DNA of 59,196 nucleotides from NCBI GenBank assembly GCA_013314855.1, contig JABUEW010000005.1:1-59196 (forward strand). The letters are read 5' to 3'. Both the position numbers and the translations under genes were made by a program. Shown here piece by piece: positions 3,294 to 45,381 of this stretch; the first letter of the stretch is position 1, and every line of letters begins with the position of its first letter. A model generated the notes under the pieces. The model saw only the letters and a list, made by a program, of their open reading frames with translations, did no database searches and was not told the origin of the DNA. Source of the stretch: Bacillota bacterium (GTDB lineage Bacteria; Bacillota; Clostridia; Acetivibrionales; DUMC01).

Positions 3294-3365
3294 AAAAAGT
3301 AAAATCAGCGCTACAAATCACAAATCTCCATCCTCCTTTGCCCTGGTTGTCTTTTGTTCTGGTTG

Positions 3366-4163
3366 TCAGGTTGCTTCTTTTACAAAATCCAGGTGCTTAT
3401 TTGTAATTTCCGCAGCAAGTTCAGGGTTGCCATCCCTTATGGCTTCGTATATCTTCTTGTGCTGATAATAAAGGACCTTTGCATTGCTGCTGTCTTTTAA
3501 TATCTTTGCCCTATTGAATTTTACGGAACTTTCCAGTATATAAGCAATAAATTCGGCAGCCTTTATCAAAACCATATTGCCTGTGAGGGAGAATATTGTC
3601 TTGTGAAACTGTATGTCAGCCTCAGCTCCCATATTAATATCATTTCCCTCGAGGGCCTTGCGCATGTTCTCAAGATGTATTTCCAGCAGTCTGACATCAG
3701 TGCTCGGACATTTATCCGCCTCTTGCATTTTAAAATCCTTTTCTATTTTGGATTGTTCATTTGCAGCACGCGCTTTTTTCACATTTTCAAGCTGCGTTTC
3801 TAAAGCCTGTCTTCTTGCGGCAAGCTTTACTGCCTCTATCTCCAGCATTTTCCTGAAATCCAGCAGATCGGTTTCCATATTTTCATTTTGAACAAAAAGA
3901 GGCGCTATTGTATTAACAAAGGGAGCTATATTCATATCCGTAATAAATGAACCTTCGCCCTGGCGCACTTCAATAAGCCCGATTATCTCCATGGCGCTGA
4001 AAGCTTCCCTTATTGATGCCCTGCTCACATTGAACATTTCCGCAAGAGTTCTCTCCGGGGGAAGGCGGTCTCCAACTTTAAGCTTGCCTTCCTTGATCAT
4101 TAGGACAAGCTGCTCGATTATCGACTGGTATATTCTCTTTATGCTTATAGGGCTAACTTCCAT
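3366..4163 (-). CDS. GntR-family (FadR/FCD subgroup) transcriptional regulator of 2-hydroxyacid use
   Basis: An N-terminal winged helix-turn-helix (GDRLPPERTLAEMFNVSRAS, then IREAFSAMEIIGLIEVRQGEG) is followed by an all-helical FCD ligand domain with the usual metal/ligand His positions (IQFHKTIF near 195, YYQHKKIY near 235, NKHLDFVKEA at the end). The ATG at 4163 has GGGGG 5-6 bases upstream and is preferred to a longer N-terminal extension. The FCD domain holds a ~35-residue charged insert around residues 120-155 (EQSKIEKDFKMQEADKCPS). A copy of the shared operator lies ~80 bases upstream, so autoregulation together with control of glcD-larA is likely. LldR-type lactate sensing is an inference. 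Confidence 0.85.
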   Translation of the reverse strand: MEVSPISIKRIYQSIIEQLVLMIKEGKLKVGDRLPPERTLAEMFNVSRASIREAFSAMEIIGLIEVRQGEGSFITDMNIAPFVNTIAPLFVQNENMETDLLDFRKMLEIEAVKLAARRQALETQLENVKKARAANEQSKIEKDFKMQEADKCPSTDVRLLEIHLENMRKALEGNDINMGAEADIQFHKTIFSLTGNMVLIKAAEFIAYILESSVKFNRAKILKDSSNAKVLYYQHKKIYEAIRDGNPELAAEITNKHLDFVKEAT

Positions 4164-18813: not shown

Positions 18814-19083
18814 CTAATACTCGTACTGAATACCATGGACACCTTTATACTTTTTTGGTATCATCTCACCGCCGCAGTTTTCACAAGAGAATCGTGGCGG
18901 TACATCTATATCTCCATCATCCATTGCATCACAATATTCTACAACTTCCCTTGGTATATCCTCTTCAACATTACATTGCAAGCAAATGAATCTGACCGTC
19001 GATTTGCTGCTGTTTTGGGTTGATTTTAACCATTTTCTCTTTTCTTCTTCCCTTTGCAATCTTCTTTTTTCTTGGCGGTTCAT
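18814..19083 (-). CDS. Small zinc-ribbon ORF of the IS91-like element, copy 1
   Basis: 89 residues: a basic N-terminal half (NRQEKRRLQREEEKRKW) and a zinc-ribbon pattern CLQC...C...CENCGGEMIP. It overlaps the 3' end of the transposase gene by 113 bases in another frame. The ribosome site is weak, so translational coupling is plausible. An accessory role in transposition is inferred from position alone. Confidence 0.6.
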   Translation of the reverse strand: MNRQEKRRLQREEEKRKWLKSTQNSSKSTVRFICLQCNVEEDIPREVVEYCDAMDDGDIDVPPRFSCENCGGEMIPKKYKGVHGIQYEY

Positions 19084-20257
19084 ATCCTATCAATCCCTCC
19101 AAACATCGTCGGGCCTTCGCACACTTTGCATATGTTATCACTAATTTACCATTCTTCAAACATACCTCGCCCTTATATTCCATTTCTACTTCACATCTTG
19201 GACACATCAGCGGATTCTTCCCTGTTCCCGCCTCAACTTTTTCCTTCCAGCTCTTTTTGGGTATTTTATTCTTTTTTACTTTGAGTATTTTATCTACTTT
19301 TGCCTTGTTTCTCCTTGAATATAACCCATAATACCTTATCGTTTTAAAATTCCTGTCCGGTATATGCCTTATTATCCTTGCTATAAATTCCATTACATCT
19401 ATTGTCTCTGTTTTCTCCTTATTTTCTTTTTTATCAAAATATTTGAATGTTACTGTCTTGCCATCATATGACAATATCCTTCTTAAAGCTATTGCCGGCC
19501 TCCTTATATATCTGCCTATATAACCAATCTGCTCCTTTATCCCTACTTTCCTTTTGTTTGGCGGTCCATATACCACAAACCCCTCATCATTATTACTGTA
19601 TGTCTTGCCTAATACCTTCCCGTATCTTTCTTTGTCACGGCCCGATAACTTCTTTCTTAGCATTTTTATTACGCAGTACTGCCATCTTTTTCTCAACATT
19701 TCATATGGGATGAAACCAACTCGTTTCATCCTACCATCATTTGTTAACCCACCCTCTGTAAGTAATACATGTACATGAGGATTAAAATTCATTGTAGCTC
19801 CAAACGTGTGAAGCCCCACCATCATACCAACTTCTACTTTTTCTCTTTTTTTAAACCAGTCCTGCAATAAGTCAACTGATATATCCATTAAGTCTTTTAG
19901 CAGATCTCGACGTCTTAGAAATATTTCCCACATCTCCTCAGGAAGTGTGAACATGATATGCCTATGTGGAATGTCATACATATTCTCTGCCGTTTTCCTG
20001 CTCCATTCCTGCATATATCCTGTTGCACAAACACTGCAAAATCTTCCCTTACAACGATGGGGCACTACTTTTGTCTCACCACAACAATCACACGCAAACA
20101 GGCTGAACCCTGCTTCTTTCTCACCACACAACCGGAATTTCTCTACTTCTTCAATTACTACCTCCCTTATGTTTTTACCGTGCAGTTTTACAAATCTGTC
20201 CCAGTTTTTATTCTCATCAAAAAATATTTGCTTTAATATATTTTCTTTCGTATCCAT
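18971..20257 (-). CDS. IS91-family transposase (Y2/HUH type), copy 1
   Basis: 428 residues. The N-terminal zinc finger is CDCCGETKVVPHRCKGRFCS (residues ~55-75). Then come PHRHIMFTLP, the HUH motif as NPHVHVLLTEGG (near 158-170), and the catalytic Tyr region GYIGRYIRRPAIALRR (near 245-260) with two Tyr. The C-terminal CPRCEVEMEYKGEV resembles a second zinc ribbon. Such enzymes nick at oriIS and move the element by rolling-circle replication. The protein is identical to the one in copy 2. Confidence 0.92.
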   Translation of the reverse strand: MDTKENILKQIFFDENKNWDRFVKLHGKNIREVVIEEVEKFRLCGEKEAGFSLFACDCCGETKVVPHRCKGRFCSVCATGYMQEWSRKTAENMYDIPHRHIMFTLPEEMWEIFLRRRDLLKDLMDISVDLLQDWFKKREKVEVGMMVGLHTFGATMNFNPHVHVLLTEGGLTNDGRMKRVGFIPYEMLRKRWQYCVIKMLRKKLSGRDKERYGKVLGKTYSNNDEGFVVYGPPNKRKVGIKEQIGYIGRYIRRPAIALRRILSYDGKTVTFKYFDKKENKEKTETIDVMEFIARIIRHIPDRNFKTIRYYGLYSRRNKAKVDKILKVKKNKIPKKSWKEKVEAGTGKNPLMCPRCEVEMEYKGEVCLKNGKLVITYAKCAKARRCLEGLIGYEPPRKKKIAKGRRKEKMVKINPKQQQIDGQIHLLAM

Positions 20258-20438: not shown

Positions 20439-20708
20439 CTAATACTCGTACTGAATACCATGGACACCTTTATACTTTTTTGGTATCATCTCACCGCCGC
20501 AGTTTTCACAAGAGAATCGTGGCGGTACATCTATATCTCCATCATCCATTGCATCACAATATTCTACAACTTCCCTTGGTATATCCTCTTCAACATTACA
20601 TTGCAAGCAAATGAATCTGACCGTCGATTTGCTGCTGTTTTGGGTTGATTTTAACCATTTTCTCTTTTCTTCTTCCCTTTGCAATCTTCTTTTTTCTTGG
20701 CGGTTCAT
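20439..20708 (-). CDS. Small zinc-ribbon ORF of the IS91-like element, copy 2
   Basis: Identical in sequence to 18814-19083 and in the same overlapping arrangement with its transposase. Confidence 0.6.
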   Translation of the reverse strand: MNRQEKRRLQREEEKRKWLKSTQNSSKSTVRFICLQCNVEEDIPREVVEYCDAMDDGDIDVPPRFSCENCGGEMIPKKYKGVHGIQYEY

Positions 20709-21882
20709 ATCCTATCAATCCCTCCAAACATCGTCGGGCCTTCGCACACTTTGCATATGTTATCACTAATTTACCATTCTTCAAACATACCTCGCCCTTA
20801 TATTCCATTTCTACTTCACATCTTGGACACATCAGCGGATTCTTCCCTGTTCCCGCCTCAACTTTTTCCTTCCAGCTCTTTTTGGGTATTTTATTCTTTT
20901 TTACTTTGAGTATTTTATCTACTTTTGCCTTGTTTCTCCTTGAATATAACCCATAATACCTTATCGTTTTAAAATTCCTGTCCGGTATATGCCTTATTAT
21001 CCTTGCTATAAATTCCATTACATCTATTGTCTCTGTTTTCTCCTTATTTTCTTTTTTATCAAAATATTTGAATGTTACTGTCTTGCCATCATATGACAAT
21101 ATCCTTCTTAAAGCTATTGCCGGCCTCCTTATATATCTGCCTATATAACCAATCTGCTCCTTTATCCCTACTTTCCTTTTGTTTGGCGGTCCATATACCA
21201 CAAACCCCTCATCATTATTACTGTATGTCTTGCCTAATACCTTCCCGTATCTTTCTTTGTCACGGCCCGATAACTTCTTTCTTAGCATTTTTATTACGCA
21301 GTACTGCCATCTTTTTCTCAACATTTCATATGGGATGAAACCAACTCGTTTCATCCTACCATCATTTGTTAACCCACCCTCTGTAAGTAATACATGTACA
21401 TGAGGATTAAAATTCATTGTAGCTCCAAACGTGTGAAGCCCCACCATCATACCAACTTCTACTTTTTCTCTTTTTTTAAACCAGTCCTGCAATAAGTCAA
21501 CTGATATATCCATTAAGTCTTTTAGCAGATCTCGACGTCTTAGAAATATTTCCCACATCTCCTCAGGAAGTGTGAACATGATATGCCTATGTGGAATGTC
21601 ATACATATTCTCTGCCGTTTTCCTGCTCCATTCCTGCATATATCCTGTTGCACAAACACTGCAAAATCTTCCCTTACAACGATGGGGCACTACTTTTGTC
21701 TCACCACAACAATCACACGCAAACAGGCTGAACCCTGCTTCTTTCTCACCACACAACCGGAATTTCTCTACTTCTTCAATTACTACCTCCCTTATGTTTT
21801 TACCGTGCAGTTTTACAAATCTGTCCCAGTTTTTATTCTCATCAAAAAATATTTGCTTTAATATATTTTCTTTCGTATCCAT
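20596..21882 (-). CDS. IS91-family transposase (Y2/HUH type), copy 2
   Basis: Identical to the copy 1 transposase: zinc finger, NPHVHVLL HUH motif and GYIGRYIRRP Tyr motif all intact. Both copies therefore look able to act. Identity points to a very recent duplication, or to one transposition event that delivered a dimer. Confidence 0.92.
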   Translation of the reverse strand: MDTKENILKQIFFDENKNWDRFVKLHGKNIREVVIEEVEKFRLCGEKEAGFSLFACDCCGETKVVPHRCKGRFCSVCATGYMQEWSRKTAENMYDIPHRHIMFTLPEEMWEIFLRRRDLLKDLMDISVDLLQDWFKKREKVEVGMMVGLHTFGATMNFNPHVHVLLTEGGLTNDGRMKRVGFIPYEMLRKRWQYCVIKMLRKKLSGRDKERYGKVLGKTYSNNDEGFVVYGPPNKRKVGIKEQIGYIGRYIRRPAIALRRILSYDGKTVTFKYFDKKENKEKTETIDVMEFIARIIRHIPDRNFKTIRYYGLYSRRNKAKVDKILKVKKNKIPKKSWKEKVEAGTGKNPLMCPRCEVEMEYKGEVCLKNGKLVITYAKCAKARRCLEGLIGYEPPRKKKIAKGRRKEKMVKINPKQQQIDGQIHLLAM

Positions 21883-35668: not shown

Positions 35669-35697
35669 TTGCATCAATATAATTATTATGCTATAAT
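35669..35697 (+). promoter_or_regulatory. Sigma-A promoter of glnA
   Basis: TTGCAT (35669-35674), a 17-base spacer and TATAAT (35692-35697), placing the start near 35704 and giving a ~185-nt leader that includes the ANTAR element and terminator. Confidence 0.75.
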
Positions 35698-35737: not shown

Positions 35738-35798
35738 ACCTATTTGATTGTGCAATGAAGCATACAGGTAATTGCAAGACGTACTCAACGAAGGGTAT
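35738..35798 (+). ncRNA. ANTAR dual-hexaloop antiterminator element in the glnA leader
   Basis: Two stem-loops, each with a six-base loop having A at position 1 and G at position 4: P1 TGTGC-AATGAA-GCATA (35749-35764, extendable with ACCT/AGGT at 35738 and 35766) and P2 GTACTC-AACGAA-GGGTAT (35781-35798). This is the target recognised by ANTAR-domain proteins such as EutV/NasR. P2 shares bases with the terminator stem, so protein binding would favour antitermination. An ANTAR regulator is encoded at 44800-45381. Confidence 0.8.
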
Positions 35799-35826
35799 TT
35801 ATCATTCGTCAAGTACGTCTTTTTAT
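35778..35826 (+). terminator. Regulated intrinsic terminator before glnA
   Basis: GACGTACT (35778-35785) pairs with AGTACGTC (35812-35819), followed by TTTTT. The 5' arm overlaps hairpin P2 of the ANTAR element (35781-35798), so the two structures exclude each other. Confidence 0.85.
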
Positions 35827-35888
35827 TTATTATAAAGGTTTAAAAACTATAAATTTAAACTACAAATTTTATGAAAGGGGAGTATTAC

Positions 35889-37223
35889 ATGTCAAGATAT
35901 GGAAAAGAAGATGTTTTAAAGCTTGTAGAAGAACTAGATGTAAAATTTATACGCCTTCAGTTTACTGACATATTTGGTATGCTGAAAAATGTTGCTATTA
36001 CATCAGAACAGCTTGAGAAGGCGTTGAATAACAAGTGCATGTTTGACGGATCATCAATTGAAGGGTTTGTAAGAATTGAAGAATCAGATATGTATTTAGC
36101 ACCGGATCCCAATTCATTTGCAGTATTTCCGTGGAGGCCACAAACCGGTAAAGTAGCAAGGCTTATATGTGATGTACTTAACCCTGATGGTACTCCATTT
36201 GAAGGAGATCCAAGGTATGTTTTGAAAAAAGCCTTGAAAAAAGCCGCCGATATGGGTTATGAAAAGTTTAATGTCGGTCCCGAATGTGAATTCTTTTTGT
36301 TTCTTACCGATAACGAAGGAAACCCAACAATAAAAACCCACGACAATGCCGGATATTTTGACCTTGGACCAGTGGACTTAGGCGAAAATTCAAGAAGGGA
36401 TATTTGCCTTGCTCTTGAGGAAATGGGCTTCGAAATAGAAGCTTCTCACCATGAAGTTGCACCCGGCCAGCATGAAATTGATTTCAAATATCAGGAAGCT
36501 CTTACTACAGCAGACAATATAATGACATTCAAGATGGTTGTTAAAACTATAGCCCAAAAGAATAGTTTGCATGCTACATTCATGCCAAAACCCATTTTTG
36601 GAATTAACGGTTCAGGTATGCACACAAATATTTCGTTGTTTAAGGATGGCAAAAATGCATTTTATGATGAAACCGACTCCCTGCAATTAAGCCAGGAAGC
36701 TTATTGGTTTATCGGAGGACTTATTAAAAACATAAGATCAATTACAGCAATAACAAACCCCACTGTAAATTCTTATAAGCGCCTTGTGCCTGGCTATGAA
36801 GCACCTGTATATATCGCCTGGTCTGCAAGGAACAGAAGTCCTCTTATCAGAATACCGGCTGCTAGAGGAGAAGCTACAAGGCTTGAATTAAGGTGCCCTG
36901 ATCCATCCTGTAACCCGTATCTGGCTTTAGCTGTAATCTTAATTGCAGGTCTTGATGGAATAGAAAACAAAATTCAGCCTCCATTACCAATTGATAAAAA
37001 TATATTCGAAATGACAGAAGAACAAAGGCTGAAAGAAGGCATTCTTTCACTTCCCGGAAGCCTTGAAGAAGCCATCAATGAATTAGAAAAGAGCAAACTT
37101 GCCGAGGAGATTTTGGGAAAGCATATTTTTGTTAAATATATTGAAGCCAAAAGAAAAGAATGGGATGATTACAGGACCAAAATAACCAAATGGGAACTTG
37201 AACACTATTTAACAAAGTATTGA
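35889..37223 (+). CDS. glnA: Glutamine synthetase, type I
   Basis: Makes glutamine from glutamate, ammonia and ATP as a cytosolic dodecamer. 444 residues. [18 protein letters not shown] near 50, [11 protein letters not shown] near 125 (metal Glu), [12 protein letters not shown] near 195, [12 protein letters not shown] near 245, and the Arg loop [12 protein letters not shown] near 320 are all intact. The adenylylation-type Tyr loop is not evident, in line with the GSI-alpha form of Firmicutes. ATG 35889 follows AAAGGGGAG; an in-frame ATG 18 bases upstream lies before that site. Expression is likely gated by the ANTAR/terminator leader. Confidence 0.95.
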
Positions 37224-37366
37224 TATAATGAATGCTATGTATGTTATGCTGTACACTATCAATTAAAATTAAACTTATATAATTAACACATATTAACTAT
37301 AACAATATGTTATAATAAAATATACTGTATATTTGTCCAATCCGTTTTATTTTTATGGTGGTTTTT

Positions 37367-38272
37367 ATGGATGTTAATCTGGAACTATATAAAGTTTTTT
37401 ATTATGTTGTAAAGACAGGTAGCATCTCCAAAGCTTCCCAGGAGCTTTTTATCTCACAACCTGCAGTAAGTCAGGCCATAAAAAAGCTTGAATCCAAGCT
37501 TGGAGGGCAATTGTTCACCCGGGCACCTAAAGGAATTGTCCTTACACCTGAAGGAGAAGTCTTGTTTAAATATATTGAACAAGGCTATAATACGATATTG
37601 TTAGCAGAAAGCAAGTTTATGGAAGCTATTAATCTTGATTTGGGCAATATACGTATTGGTGCAAGCGACATGACTTTAAAATATTTTTTACTTCCTTACC
37701 TTGAAGAATTTCACAAGCAATTCCCTAAAATTAGAATAAAAGTTACAAACGGTCCGTCTCCCGAAACTGTGAATTCCCTGAAAATGGGTTCCATTGACTT
37801 TGGGGTAGTAAGCCTTCCTTTAACTAATGATGAAACAATCGATGTATCTGAAGTAATGGAAATTCAGGACTGTTTTGTTGCAAATTACCGTTTTAGCGAC
37901 CTTACTTCAAGGGAAGTCTCAATAAAGGAGCTCGTCAAGTATCCTATAATTATGCTTGAAAAAAATACGAGCACAAGGCAGTATATAGATGATTACCTGT
38001 CTCAGCATTCGGTATCACTGGTTCCTGAGTTTGAGCTTGCAACAAGCGACCTTATTGTTCAATTCGCTTGCAGAGGTTTGGGCATATCCTGTGTTGTCAG
38101 GAATTTTGCAGAAGAAAGCATAAAAAGTGGTATATTATTTGAAATTGCCTTGGAGGAAAAAATACCTCCAAGGCATATTGGCATAATTAAATTACGTAAC
38201 GTGCCGTTGACTGCTGCAGCCAAAAAGTTTATGGAGTTGATTCAAAACAAGACCAGTATTGGAAAATTTTAA
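37367..38272 (+). CDS. LysR-family transcriptional regulator
   Basis: About 301 residues. N-terminal winged helix-turn-helix (YVVKTGSISKASQELFISQP, then AVSQAIKKLESKLGGQLFTR) and a periplasmic-binding-like effector domain (GNIRIGASDMTLKYFLLPYL onward). ATG 37367 follows GGTGG; ATG 37355 is the alternative. It lies between glnA and purA on the same strand. CysB/CysL/CidR-like relatives sense small acids; the ligand here cannot be read. A nitrogen link is only contextual. Confidence 0.88.
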   Translation: MDVNLELYKVFYYVVKTGSISKASQELFISQPAVSQAIKKLESKLGGQLFTRAPKGIVLTPEGEVLFKYIEQGYNTILLAESKFMEAINLDLGNIRIGASDMTLKYFLLPYLEEFHKQFPKIRIKVTNGPSPETVNSLKMGSIDFGVVSLPLTNDETIDVSEVMEIQDCFVANYRFSDLTSREVSIKELVKYPIIMLEKNTSTRQYIDDYLSQHSVSLVPEFELATSDLIVQFACRGLGISCVVRNFAEESIKSGILFEIALEEKIPPRHIGIIKLRNVPLTAAAKKFMELIQNKTSIGKF

Positions 38273-44717: not shown

Positions 44718-44746
44718 TTGCAAAGCAGATTATAAAACAGTATAAT
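44718..44746 (+). promoter_or_regulatory. Sigma-A promoter of the ANTAR regulator gene
   Basis: TTGCAA (44718-44723), 17-base spacer, TATAAT (44741-44746), 54 bases before the start codon. Confidence 0.75.
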
Positions 44747-44799: not shown

Positions 44800-45381
44800 A
44801 TGGTTGGAATTAGAATATGTCTTGCTCTTGGTCAAATTGAAGAGATGAAAAAAATTAAATCTTTTTTAGTACATTATGGGTTTACTGTCATAGATGAATC
44901 TACTGATGGGGCATCAGCCATAAGGCGTATAAGAACCCTTCGCCCTGACTTAATTATTGCAGATAGTGACCTTCCGGGAATAAACGGTGTTCGGATTGCA
45001 GAAATCGCGGAAGAAGATGGTATTGCCCCGGTTATCGTAATAACTAACTCAGATAAAGACAGTCTATGGATCGATGTTGAACATCCTAAGGGCATTGCGT
45101 TTCTTCAACGCCCAATCACTAAATCCGCATTGCTGCAAACTATTCAGCTATCCTTGATAAGCTACCATAAAATAATGAGCCTTAAAGAAGAAATAAAAAA
45201 ACTAAAGGAAACATTAGAAGACAGAAAGCTTATCGAGAAGGCTAAGGGTATTATAATGGAAAAAAATAACCTGTCGGAAAGCGAAGCCTACAGGTTGTTA
45301 CAAAAACAGAGTATGGATAGAGGTATACCCTTGCGTGAATTAGCAAGAGCAATCATTCTAGCTCATCAAATAGATAATTAG
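44800..45381 (+). CDS. ANTAR-domain response regulator (RNA-binding antiterminator)
   Basis: 193 residues. The N-terminal receiver has the phospho-acceptor position Asp55 in IIADSDLPG, but the conserved Lys is replaced (FLQRPIT), so signalling may differ from standard receivers. A coiled-coil linker (LKEEIKKLKETLEDRKLIEK) leads to the ANTAR domain (AKGIIMEKNNLSESEAYRLL, then RGIPLRELARAII). ANTAR proteins bind dual-hexaloop RNA and prevent termination; a fitting site precedes glnA in this window (35738-35798). Ribosome site AAAGGAA before ATG 44800. No partner kinase is adjacent. Confidence 0.92.
   Translation: MVGIRICLALGQIEEMKKIKSFLVHYGFTVIDESTDGASAIRRIRTLRPDLIIADSDLPGINGVRIAEIAEEDGIAPVIVITNSDKDSLWIDVEHPKGIAFLQRPITKSALLQTIQLSLISYHKIMSLKEEIKKLKETLEDRKLIEKAKGIIMEKNNLSESEAYRLLQKQSMDRGIPLRELARAIILAHQIDN

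What the first reader, a model, noticed from the sequence alone, without database searches (positions are those of the whole stretch)
35738..35826. ANTAR dual-hexaloop antiterminator controlling glnA, with a candidate cognate regulator 9 kb away
The glnA leader has two hairpins whose hexaloops (AATGAA, AACGAA) both obey the A1/G4 rule of ANTAR targets. The second hairpin shares bases with a perfect 8-bp terminator stem and T-run. An ANTAR response regulator with its own promoter lies at 44800. This suggests nitrogen assimilation is controlled at RNA level here. The regulator's receiver lacks the usual conserved Lys, so the signal may not be simple phosphorylation.
Basis: partly seen in the sequence, partly recalled or inferred. 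Interest (0 to 1): 0.62.

Follow-up and report, generated by a model that had tools for sequence, protein, structure and literature searches.

The report
RNA switch controlling nitrogen-assimilation genes
The start of the glutamine synthetase message in this uncultured Clostridia bacterium carries a two-hairpin RNA switch of a known kind, probably flipped by the one ANTAR protein found in the genome; relatives use what looks like a stripped-down one-hairpin version, which would test how such switches work.

Summary
Confirmed and largely explained. The glnA leader holds two hexaloop hairpins (AATGAA, AACGAA); the second shares bases with a strong terminator. Related glnA leaders have the same layout. 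A covariance model finds two credible sites in the genome: glnA and a complete split-GOGAT operon. One ANTAR gene was found, the one at 44800, with the seven RNA-contact residues of EutV. Most likely it antiterminates GS and GOGAT together. Its receiver lacks the acidic pair and the Lys, so phosphorylation is unlikely. ANTAR control of GS/GOGAT is in print (Ramesh 2012): a new member of a known kind.

The surprise lies in relatives. Many glnA leaders there have one hexaloop only; in 14 it begins 3-16 nt after a good predicted -10 box, so no first hairpin would be transcribed. Of 14 genomes with single-hexaloop leaders that were searched (11 of them from that set), all have exactly one ANTAR gene and none a convincing dual site. 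That is a candidate for single-hexaloop antitermination. Nothing was tested at the bench.

The parts
35669..35697 (+). probable glnA promoter TTGCAT-17-TATAAT with TGC before the -10
   Evidence: read by eye; not listed by the scan (first hexamer matches 3 of 6)
35749..35764 (+). P1 hairpin, loop AATGAA
   Evidence: in 11 leaders 3 of the 5 P1 pairs change on both sides, the outermost pair is unpaired in 5 of 11
35781..35798 (+). P2 hairpin (antiterminator), loop AACGAA
   Evidence: closing pair at probability 0.93 in the prefix that ends just after it
35778..35819 (+). intrinsic terminator stem GACGTACT/AGTACGTC, overlapping P2
35820..35824 (+). T-run of the terminator
35871..37223 (+). glnA, type I glutamine synthetase
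   Evidence: Pfam PF00120/PF03951; NCBIfam TIGR00653 over its cut-off
44718..44746 (+). promoter-like site before the ANTAR gene, TTGCAA-17-TATAAT (10 of 12)
   Evidence: weak, since 7 such sites were found against 2.0 expected
44800..45381 (+). ANTAR response-regulator-like protein, the only ANTAR gene found in the genome; pseudo-receiver
   Evidence: PF03861 84 bits, PF00072 50 bits; single genome hit; EutV alignment; receiver residues

Best explanation
The glnA leader is a transcription attenuator with an ANTAR-dependent dual-hexaloop antiterminator. As RNA polymerase leaves the promoter, P1 and then P2 fold (computed here by prefix folding). If nothing holds P2, its 5' arm and its loop are taken into the more stable terminator hairpin and transcription stops before glnA (inferred from energies). 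A dimer of the ANTAR protein encoded at 44800 binds the hexaloops through their G4 bases, holds P2 and lets polymerase read into glnA; the same protein acts on an equivalent leader before the split-GOGAT operon elsewhere in the genome, so that both halves of the GS/GOGAT cycle rise together (inferred). The receiver lacks the acidic pair and the Lys of working receivers, so the nitrogen signal probably arrives by protein contact or ligand binding, as in AmiR, not by phosphorylation (inferred; partner unknown).
For: Structure and overlap. Prefix folding: P1+P2 is the minimum-energy fold (-11.5 to -11.9) until the 3' terminator arm appears, then the terminator at -27.4; P1+P2 alone scores -8.9. 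The loop signature without asking for it: of 137 GS upstream regions, 59 have a C-G-closed hexaloop hairpin over a terminator (20 of 2740 shuffles), with A at position 1 in 51 and G at position 4 in 53. P1 covaries in 11 aligned leaders. Regulon: model R1 finds glnA (2.3e-11) and a second leader (5.0e-6) in the genome, the next hit being E 4.07 (150 of 2143 first-look candidates were scored); behind the second leader lie a class-II amidotransferase gene, a glutamate synthase/4Fe-4S gene, a pyridine-nucleotide oxidoreductase gene and a GXGXG gene, a complete split GOGAT. In 58 genomes of the order the 21 hits at E<=0.01 precede glnA (7) or GOGAT genes (14, read from translations, Pfam-checked for three). 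One ANTAR gene. R142, K143, K147, K149, E160, Y164 and M172 of EutV (named in passages and a legend of PMC8934654) all have the same residue in the window protein (alignment; chain numbering offset of 2 inferred). Dual sites: 17 of 48 genomes with an ANTAR gene, 0 of 10 without.
Against: No binding or readthrough data. G4 looks invariant in the 11-leader alignment partly because several rows were picked with patterns that asked for it; in the count that asked for no loop letter it is 53 of 59, and positions 2, 5 and 6 are conserved too (A 53, G 47, C 42 of 59). P1 and P2 are 16 nt apart as drawn (15-21 in 11 leaders), longer than the 5-12 nt of the E. faecalis eut leaders, where 14 nt was already harmful (PMC3369931 passages); in the fold P1 extends 3' and leaves 10 nt. 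A1 is not universal. Of the whole-structure covariation measures two are weak (pairs with double change 51 of 500 shuffles as high, pair types 84 of 500). The link between sites and ANTAR presence weakens when only genomes with a type I GS hit are counted: any dual or single site in 36 of 47 with ANTAR against 2 of 5 without, Fisher p 0.11; 12 of 48 genomes with ANTAR show no site. The ANTAR gene is 9 kb from glnA here. The genome is a 252-contig draft (96.6% complete, 3.3% contamination), so a second ANTAR gene could be missing.
Confidence: 0.85

Rival explanations
1. The hairpin and T-run are a constitutive attenuator, or the terminator of read-through from the upstream phosphofructokinase gene, and the hexaloops are incidental.
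For: The terminator is strong by itself and lies between two genes on the same strand.
Against: 59 of 137 GS upstream regions have a C-G-closed hexaloop over a terminator against 20 of 2740 shuffles, with G at position 4 in 53 of 59 although no loop letter was required; P1, which the terminator does not need, covaries; the genome's only other strong site of this kind precedes GOGAT.
Confidence: 0.05
2. The leader is an ANTAR target but the ANTAR protein is switched by a histidine kinase through phosphorylation, as EutV is by EutW.
For: Asp55 is kept and the protein aligns with EutV over residues 18-187.
Against: The acidic-pair positions are Leu-Gly and the Lys is Arg104 (positions assigned from the usual receiver pattern, recalled). 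In the wider set Asp55 itself is often lost (Asp in 12 of 57 ANTAR proteins near glnA). The two genes that flank it are no kinases. No genome-wide kinase search was made.
Confidence: 0.12
3. glnA is controlled mainly by the LysR-type regulator encoded just downstream (37355-38272), and the leader only tunes it.
For: A LysR gene follows glnA directly; its NCBIfam score for GltC is 103 bits, far below the 350 cut-off.
Against: Does not explain the hexaloops or the shared GOGAT element; in 53 of 80 named loci an ANTAR reading frame lies at that place instead. The two controls are not exclusive.
Confidence: 0.08
4. The leader is a ligand-binding riboswitch.
For: Structured leader before a biosynthetic gene.
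Against: No Rfam family reaches its gathering score in the window or in 13 glnA loci of the order; the conserved core is two short hexaloop hairpins.
Confidence: 0.02

Closest known systems
Dual-hexaloop ANTAR target RNAs (EutV/eut leaders; Ramesh et al. 2012, PMC3369931)
   Same: Two hexaloop hairpins with A1/G4, the second embedded in an intrinsic terminator; targets in nitrogen genes, glutamine and glutamate synthases named among them (passages and part 1 of section 10 read).
   Different: 15-21 nt between hairpins as drawn rather than 5-12 nt; the regulator has a pseudo-receiver instead of a phosphorylated receiver.
NitR-type antiterminators linked to glnA in clostridia (C. acetobutylicum nitR; C. 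thermocellum Clo1313_2030)
   Same: ANTAR protein tied to GS/GOGAT genes; PMC4676874 proposes an antiterminator role for the C. thermocellum ANTAR protein in the GS-GOGAT cluster (passages read).
   Different: Here the ANTAR gene is 9 kb from glnA, and the leader elements of both operons are located. The C. acetobutylicum paper is not held, so its leader was not compared.
AmiR (pseudo-receiver ANTAR regulator)
   Same: Receiver-like domain that is not phosphorylated (PMC3369936 passages).
   Different: AmiR answers to a partner protein (AmiC, recalled); no partner is known here.
Single-hexaloop binding model of Walshe et al. 2022 (PMC8934654)
   Same: EutV contacts one hexaloop at a time and G4 is the only base-specific contact (passages read), in line with G4 being the commonest loop letter here (53 of 59, with A2).
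   Different: That paper still needs both hexaloops for antitermination; the single-hexaloop glnA leaders of relatives described here would do with one.

Membership tests
Dual-hexaloop ANTAR target RNA | two hairpins of at least 3 bp with six-base loops | tested here: met
Dual-hexaloop ANTAR target RNA | A at loop position 1 and G at position 4 in both loops | tested here: met
   met in the window (AATGAA, AACGAA). In 11 aligned leaders G4 is 11/11 in both loops (partly by selection), A1 is 9/11 in P1 and 10/11 in P2
Dual-hexaloop ANTAR target RNA | second hairpin overlaps an intrinsic terminator | tested here: met
Dual-hexaloop ANTAR target RNA | linker of the eut range (5-12 nt) | tested here: inconclusive
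   16 nt as drawn, 10 nt if P1 extends as in the fold
Dual-hexaloop ANTAR target RNA | genome encodes an ANTAR protein | tested here: met
   one found, in the window
Dual-hexaloop ANTAR target RNA | bound by the ANTAR protein and antiterminates | not testable with these tools
   needs gel shift and in vitro transcription
ANTAR response regulator of the EutV kind | C-terminal ANTAR domain with the RNA-contact residues | tested here: met
   PF03861 84 bits; all seven EutV contact residues present
ANTAR response regulator of the EutV kind | phosphorylation-competent receiver (acidic pair, Asp, Lys) | tested here: not met
   Asp55 present; acidic-pair positions are Leu10-Gly11 and the Lys position is Arg104
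ANTAR response regulator of the EutV kind | cognate histidine kinase | not tested
   the two flanking genes are no kinases; genome-wide kinases not searched
NitR of C. acetobutylicum | sequence relation to NitR and a NitR-like leader | not tested
   NitR sequence not fetched and its paper not held

The most novel reading that the evidence does not exclude
In many Clostridia (Lachnospiraceae and much of the window's order) glnA is antiterminated by an ANTAR protein through one hexaloop only, in part of them placed at or close to the first bases of the transcript, with no P1 hairpin; the dual-hexaloop rule is then not general, and the degenerate receivers of these glnA-linked ANTAR proteins mean that the nitrogen signal arrives without phosphorylation. 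The window's dual-hexaloop glnA leader would be one of two interchangeable architectures serving the same gene.
Probability: 0.5. Interest if true: 0.66.

Novelty: new member of a known kind. Interest (0 to 1): 0.45.

Why it matters
It puts both halves of ammonium assimilation (GS and GOGAT) of an uncultured Clostridia lineage under one RNA-level switch and names its probable protein. The comparison also gives a natural series of glnA leaders with two hexaloops and with one. That series makes directly testable the question left open by the EutV structure paper (Walshe 2022): what single hexaloops can do. It also shows glnA-linked ANTAR proteins whose receivers have lost phosphorylation residues, so how they sense nitrogen is an open and approachable question.

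Tried and rejected
Orientation error: read loci of minus-strand matches in the wrong orientation and found only 3 of 67 leaders with a dual motif; one search corrected this (4 of 67 strict; 7 of 67 relaxed, three of these by weak chance-like pairs). The strict motif misses window-type leaders with G or T at loop position 1 or a degraded P1, so one search used a P2 pattern (7 of 67), which itself asks for G4.

Rejected as chance: model R1 hits at E 4-9 in the genome and at E 0.05-0.26 in five of the 14 single-hexaloop genomes: two lie over what look like ribosome-binding sites, one inside a gene, two could not be judged, and none is followed by a run of five T in the 60 bases printed. R1 was built from glnA leaders, so a very different dual site could escape it. 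Model R2 (single hexaloop) gave nothing credible in the window's genome (best E 0.60). Rfam: no match.

Dropped or unfollowed rows: L057, L126 and L128 were left out of the dual alignment A2 (P1 degenerate, noticed late, or not detected). From 43 single leaders, L057 and L128 (window-type P2) and L130, L140, L108 (same or near-same sequences) were left out, leaving 38. A stem of at least 4 bp with a C-G closing pair was part of the selection, so the percentage of paired cells is inflated, and its count of pairs with double change does not exceed shuffles (338 of 500 as high); the score and the number of cells do. The 137 upstream regions (147 less 10) still hold at least two duplicate pairs. 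Of the 39 R2 rows in the order the downstream gene was assigned for 32; 7 were not followed. The named loci are the best 80 of 266.

Literature: searches, whose long listings were seen only in part (for example 20 of 485 and 20 of 599). ANTAR plus 'single hexaloop' gave one paper, PMC8934654. I saw no paper on single-hexaloop ANTAR leaders of glnA in these listings.

Full report
1. What is there. The leader of glnA (window 35738-35826) contains P1 (35749-35764, loop AATGAA), P2 (35781-35798, loop AACGAA) and an intrinsic terminator whose 8-bp stem GACGTACT/AGTACGTC shares its 5' arm with P2. The folded leader is at -27.4 kcal/mol, z -5.03 against shuffles. In that fold five of the six P2 loop bases are paired inside the terminator, so the terminator hides the second hexaloop. 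Prefix folding gives the order of events: when P2 has just been made, P1 and P2 are the minimum-energy fold (closing pairs at probability 0.87 and 0.93), and the terminator wins only as its 3' arm comes out (-27.4 against -8.9 for P1+P2 alone). Default termination with a time window for an antiterminator is the natural reading. A promoter TTGCAT-17-TATAAT can be read by eye at 35669-35697; the scan does not list it.

2. More than chance. The dual A1/G4 motif appeared in 0 of 50 shuffles of this upstream region, and one IUPAC form of it occurs once in 4.43 Mb with a control count of 0. Among 137 GS upstream regions of the order and of named relatives, 59 have a C-G-closed hexaloop hairpin overlapping a terminator, against 20 of 2740 shuffles. 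No loop letter was asked for in that count, yet position 1 is A in 51 and position 4 is G in 53 of the 59. Position 2 (A in 53), 5 (G in 47) and 6 (C in 42) are also conserved; position 3 is mixed. A1 and G4 are the published ANTAR signature.

3. Conservation. Eleven leaders of the window's type (from the order and from named relatives, among them Caldicoprobacter algeriensis and Clostridium bovifaecis) align with A1 in 9 of 11 (P1) and 10 of 11 (P2) and G4 in 11 of 11 in both loops; G4 was partly a condition of picking them. P1 covaries: three of its five pairs change on both sides, and the covariation score of the whole structure is 0.258 against 0.159 in shuffles (0 of 500 as high), while two other measures are not striking. 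P2 hardly varies, as expected if it serves two structures.

4. Regulon. Model R1, built from those eleven, finds two credible sites in the window's genome: glnA (E 2.3e-11) and C66:5483-5538 (E 5.0e-6), the next being E 4.07. The second has its own terminator-like hairpin and T-run (sequence). Behind it lie, in a row on the same strand, a class-II glutamine amidotransferase gene, a 4Fe-4S/glutamate synthase gene (PF01645, 477 bits), a pyridine-nucleotide oxidoreductase gene and a GXGXG gene, that is a complete split GOGAT. Across 58 genomes of the order, the 21 hits at E<=0.01 precede glnA (7) or GOGAT genes (14). The regulon is therefore the GS/GOGAT cycle. In the relative G002 a two-hexaloop leader precedes type III glutamine synthetase. 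Neither the window nor 13 glnA loci of the order match an Rfam family.

5. The protein. The genome search found a single ANTAR domain, in the ORF at 44800-45381. Aligned to EutV (6wsh/6ww6) it has the residues R142, K143, K147, K149, E160, Y164 and M172 (contacts from passages and a legend of PMC8934654). K149 and E160 are invariant in all 87 rows compared (30 loci from the order, 57 from named glnA loci, some organisms in both), whereas R142, K143 and K147 vary in the named set. The receiver is not a canonical one: the acidic-pair positions are Leu-Gly and the Lys is Arg104, though Asp55 is present. None of the 87 rows has an acidic residue at the first of the two positions. Asp55 is Asp in 17 of 30 and 12 of 57, the Lys is Lys in 26 of 30 and 12 of 57. 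Pseudo-receivers are known in ANTAR proteins (AmiR; PMC3369936 passages). The partner or ligand is unknown. Linkage is common: in 53 of 80 named glnA loci the ANTAR reading frame starts 1.2-1.7 kb after the glnA start. In the window they are 9 kb apart, with a LysR gene, an adenylosuccinate synthetase gene and three genes on the other strand between.

6. The single-hexaloop class. Most glnA leaders with the signature have no P1 by the rule: 43 of 53 are single and 10 dual (two of the 43, L057 and L128, are window-type by their P2, and a few are duplicates). A set of 38 single leaders covaries in the stem (29 cells with changes on both sides against 9.5 in shuffles, score 0.566 against 0.310, 0 of 500 as high for both, with the selection caveat under Tried and rejected). 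In 14 of them a promoter that matches the consensus at 10 or more of 12 positions has its -10 box only 3-16 nt before the hairpin, so the hairpin would sit at or near the first base of the RNA and a P1 could not be transcribed. These are predicted promoters, not mapped starts. Eleven of 38 have some further NNNGNN hexaloop nearby, upstream or downstream; these are short, A+U-rich or inside the terminator or promoter. Fourteen genomes with single-hexaloop leaders were searched, 11 of them from the set of 14 just named and three others (L145, L160, L163): each has exactly one ANTAR gene, in 11 of 14 within the DNA held around glnA, and none has a convincing dual site. Their completeness is not known. 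In EutV the deletion of P1 ablated eutP induction (PMC3369931 passages), and the two published searches read here asked for two stem-loops. A lone-hexaloop antiterminator is thus a variant that those searches would have missed; Walshe 2022 asks for work on single hexaloops.

7. Presence and absence. Dual sites occur in 17 of 48 genomes of the order with an ANTAR gene and 0 of 10 without. Any site (dual or single) occurs in 36 of 48 against 2 of 10 (Fisher p 0.0018). Restricted to genomes with a type I GS hit it is 36 of 47 against 2 of 5 (p 0.11), so the association is not independent of GS content. Of the two exceptions, G037 has a weakened hairpin (closing pair T-G) and G042 an intact one in an 87% complete draft; in G038 the hairpin is broken while a hairpin and T-run remain (read by eye).

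8. Known or new. ANTAR control of glutamine and glutamate synthase genes is in print (Ramesh 2012; commentary PMC3369936), and an ANTAR protein in the C. thermocellum GS-GOGAT cluster has been proposed as an antiterminator (PMC4676874). The window element is a new member of that kind. What may be new is the single-hexaloop class and the loss of phosphorylation residues in these glnA-linked ANTAR proteins.

9. The organism. Its order holds Pseudobacteroides cellulosolvens (contig of identical length in G031 and L130), and the same-genus genome G001 corresponds to a Clostridiaceae assembly, isolate AS09scLD_118 (contig and gene position identical in L055 and L124).

Noticed in passing
18971-20257 and 20596-21882 (- strand): Two 428-aa ORFs 1625 bases apart with the same pattern of overlapping ORFs on both strands, which looks like a recent tandem duplication.
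   Followed up: no
37355-38272 (+): LysR-family regulator directly downstream of glnA; distant to GltC by NCBIfam (103 bits, cut-off 350).
   Followed up: partly
G000:C74 (L085), L086, L088: A second glnA in this genome (the only type I hit in G002) follows closely on a gene whose product ends like a PP2C/SpoIIE-type phosphatase (recalled resemblance), with no hexaloop leader found.
   Followed up: no
L120 about 3345-3440: In relative G002 a leader with two hexaloops of the single-class type (AATGGC, AAAGGC) and a terminator precedes a type III glutamine synthetase gene.
   Followed up: partly
L256, L258: In G004 and G003 weaker single-class model hits with a T-run precede a peptidase C26 gene; the hexaloop hairpin is imperfect (Pfam for L256 only).
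   Followed up: partly
L090, L092: In two genomes with no ANTAR gene found the glnA leader keeps a T-run hairpin while the hexaloop hairpin is broken (G038) or weakened (G037) (by eye).
   Followed up: partly
L123, L125, L126: ANTAR proteins sharing the window protein's QRP motif (Lys to Arg) are encoded on the opposite strand upstream of glnA.
   Followed up: no
57 ANTAR proteins of named glnA loci: The Tyr164 that stacks on G4 in EutV is His in 41 of 57.
   Followed up: no
L084 (G047, second glnA): A single-class leader with A at loop position 4 (AATAGC) in a genome whose other glnA has a dual leader.
   Followed up: no
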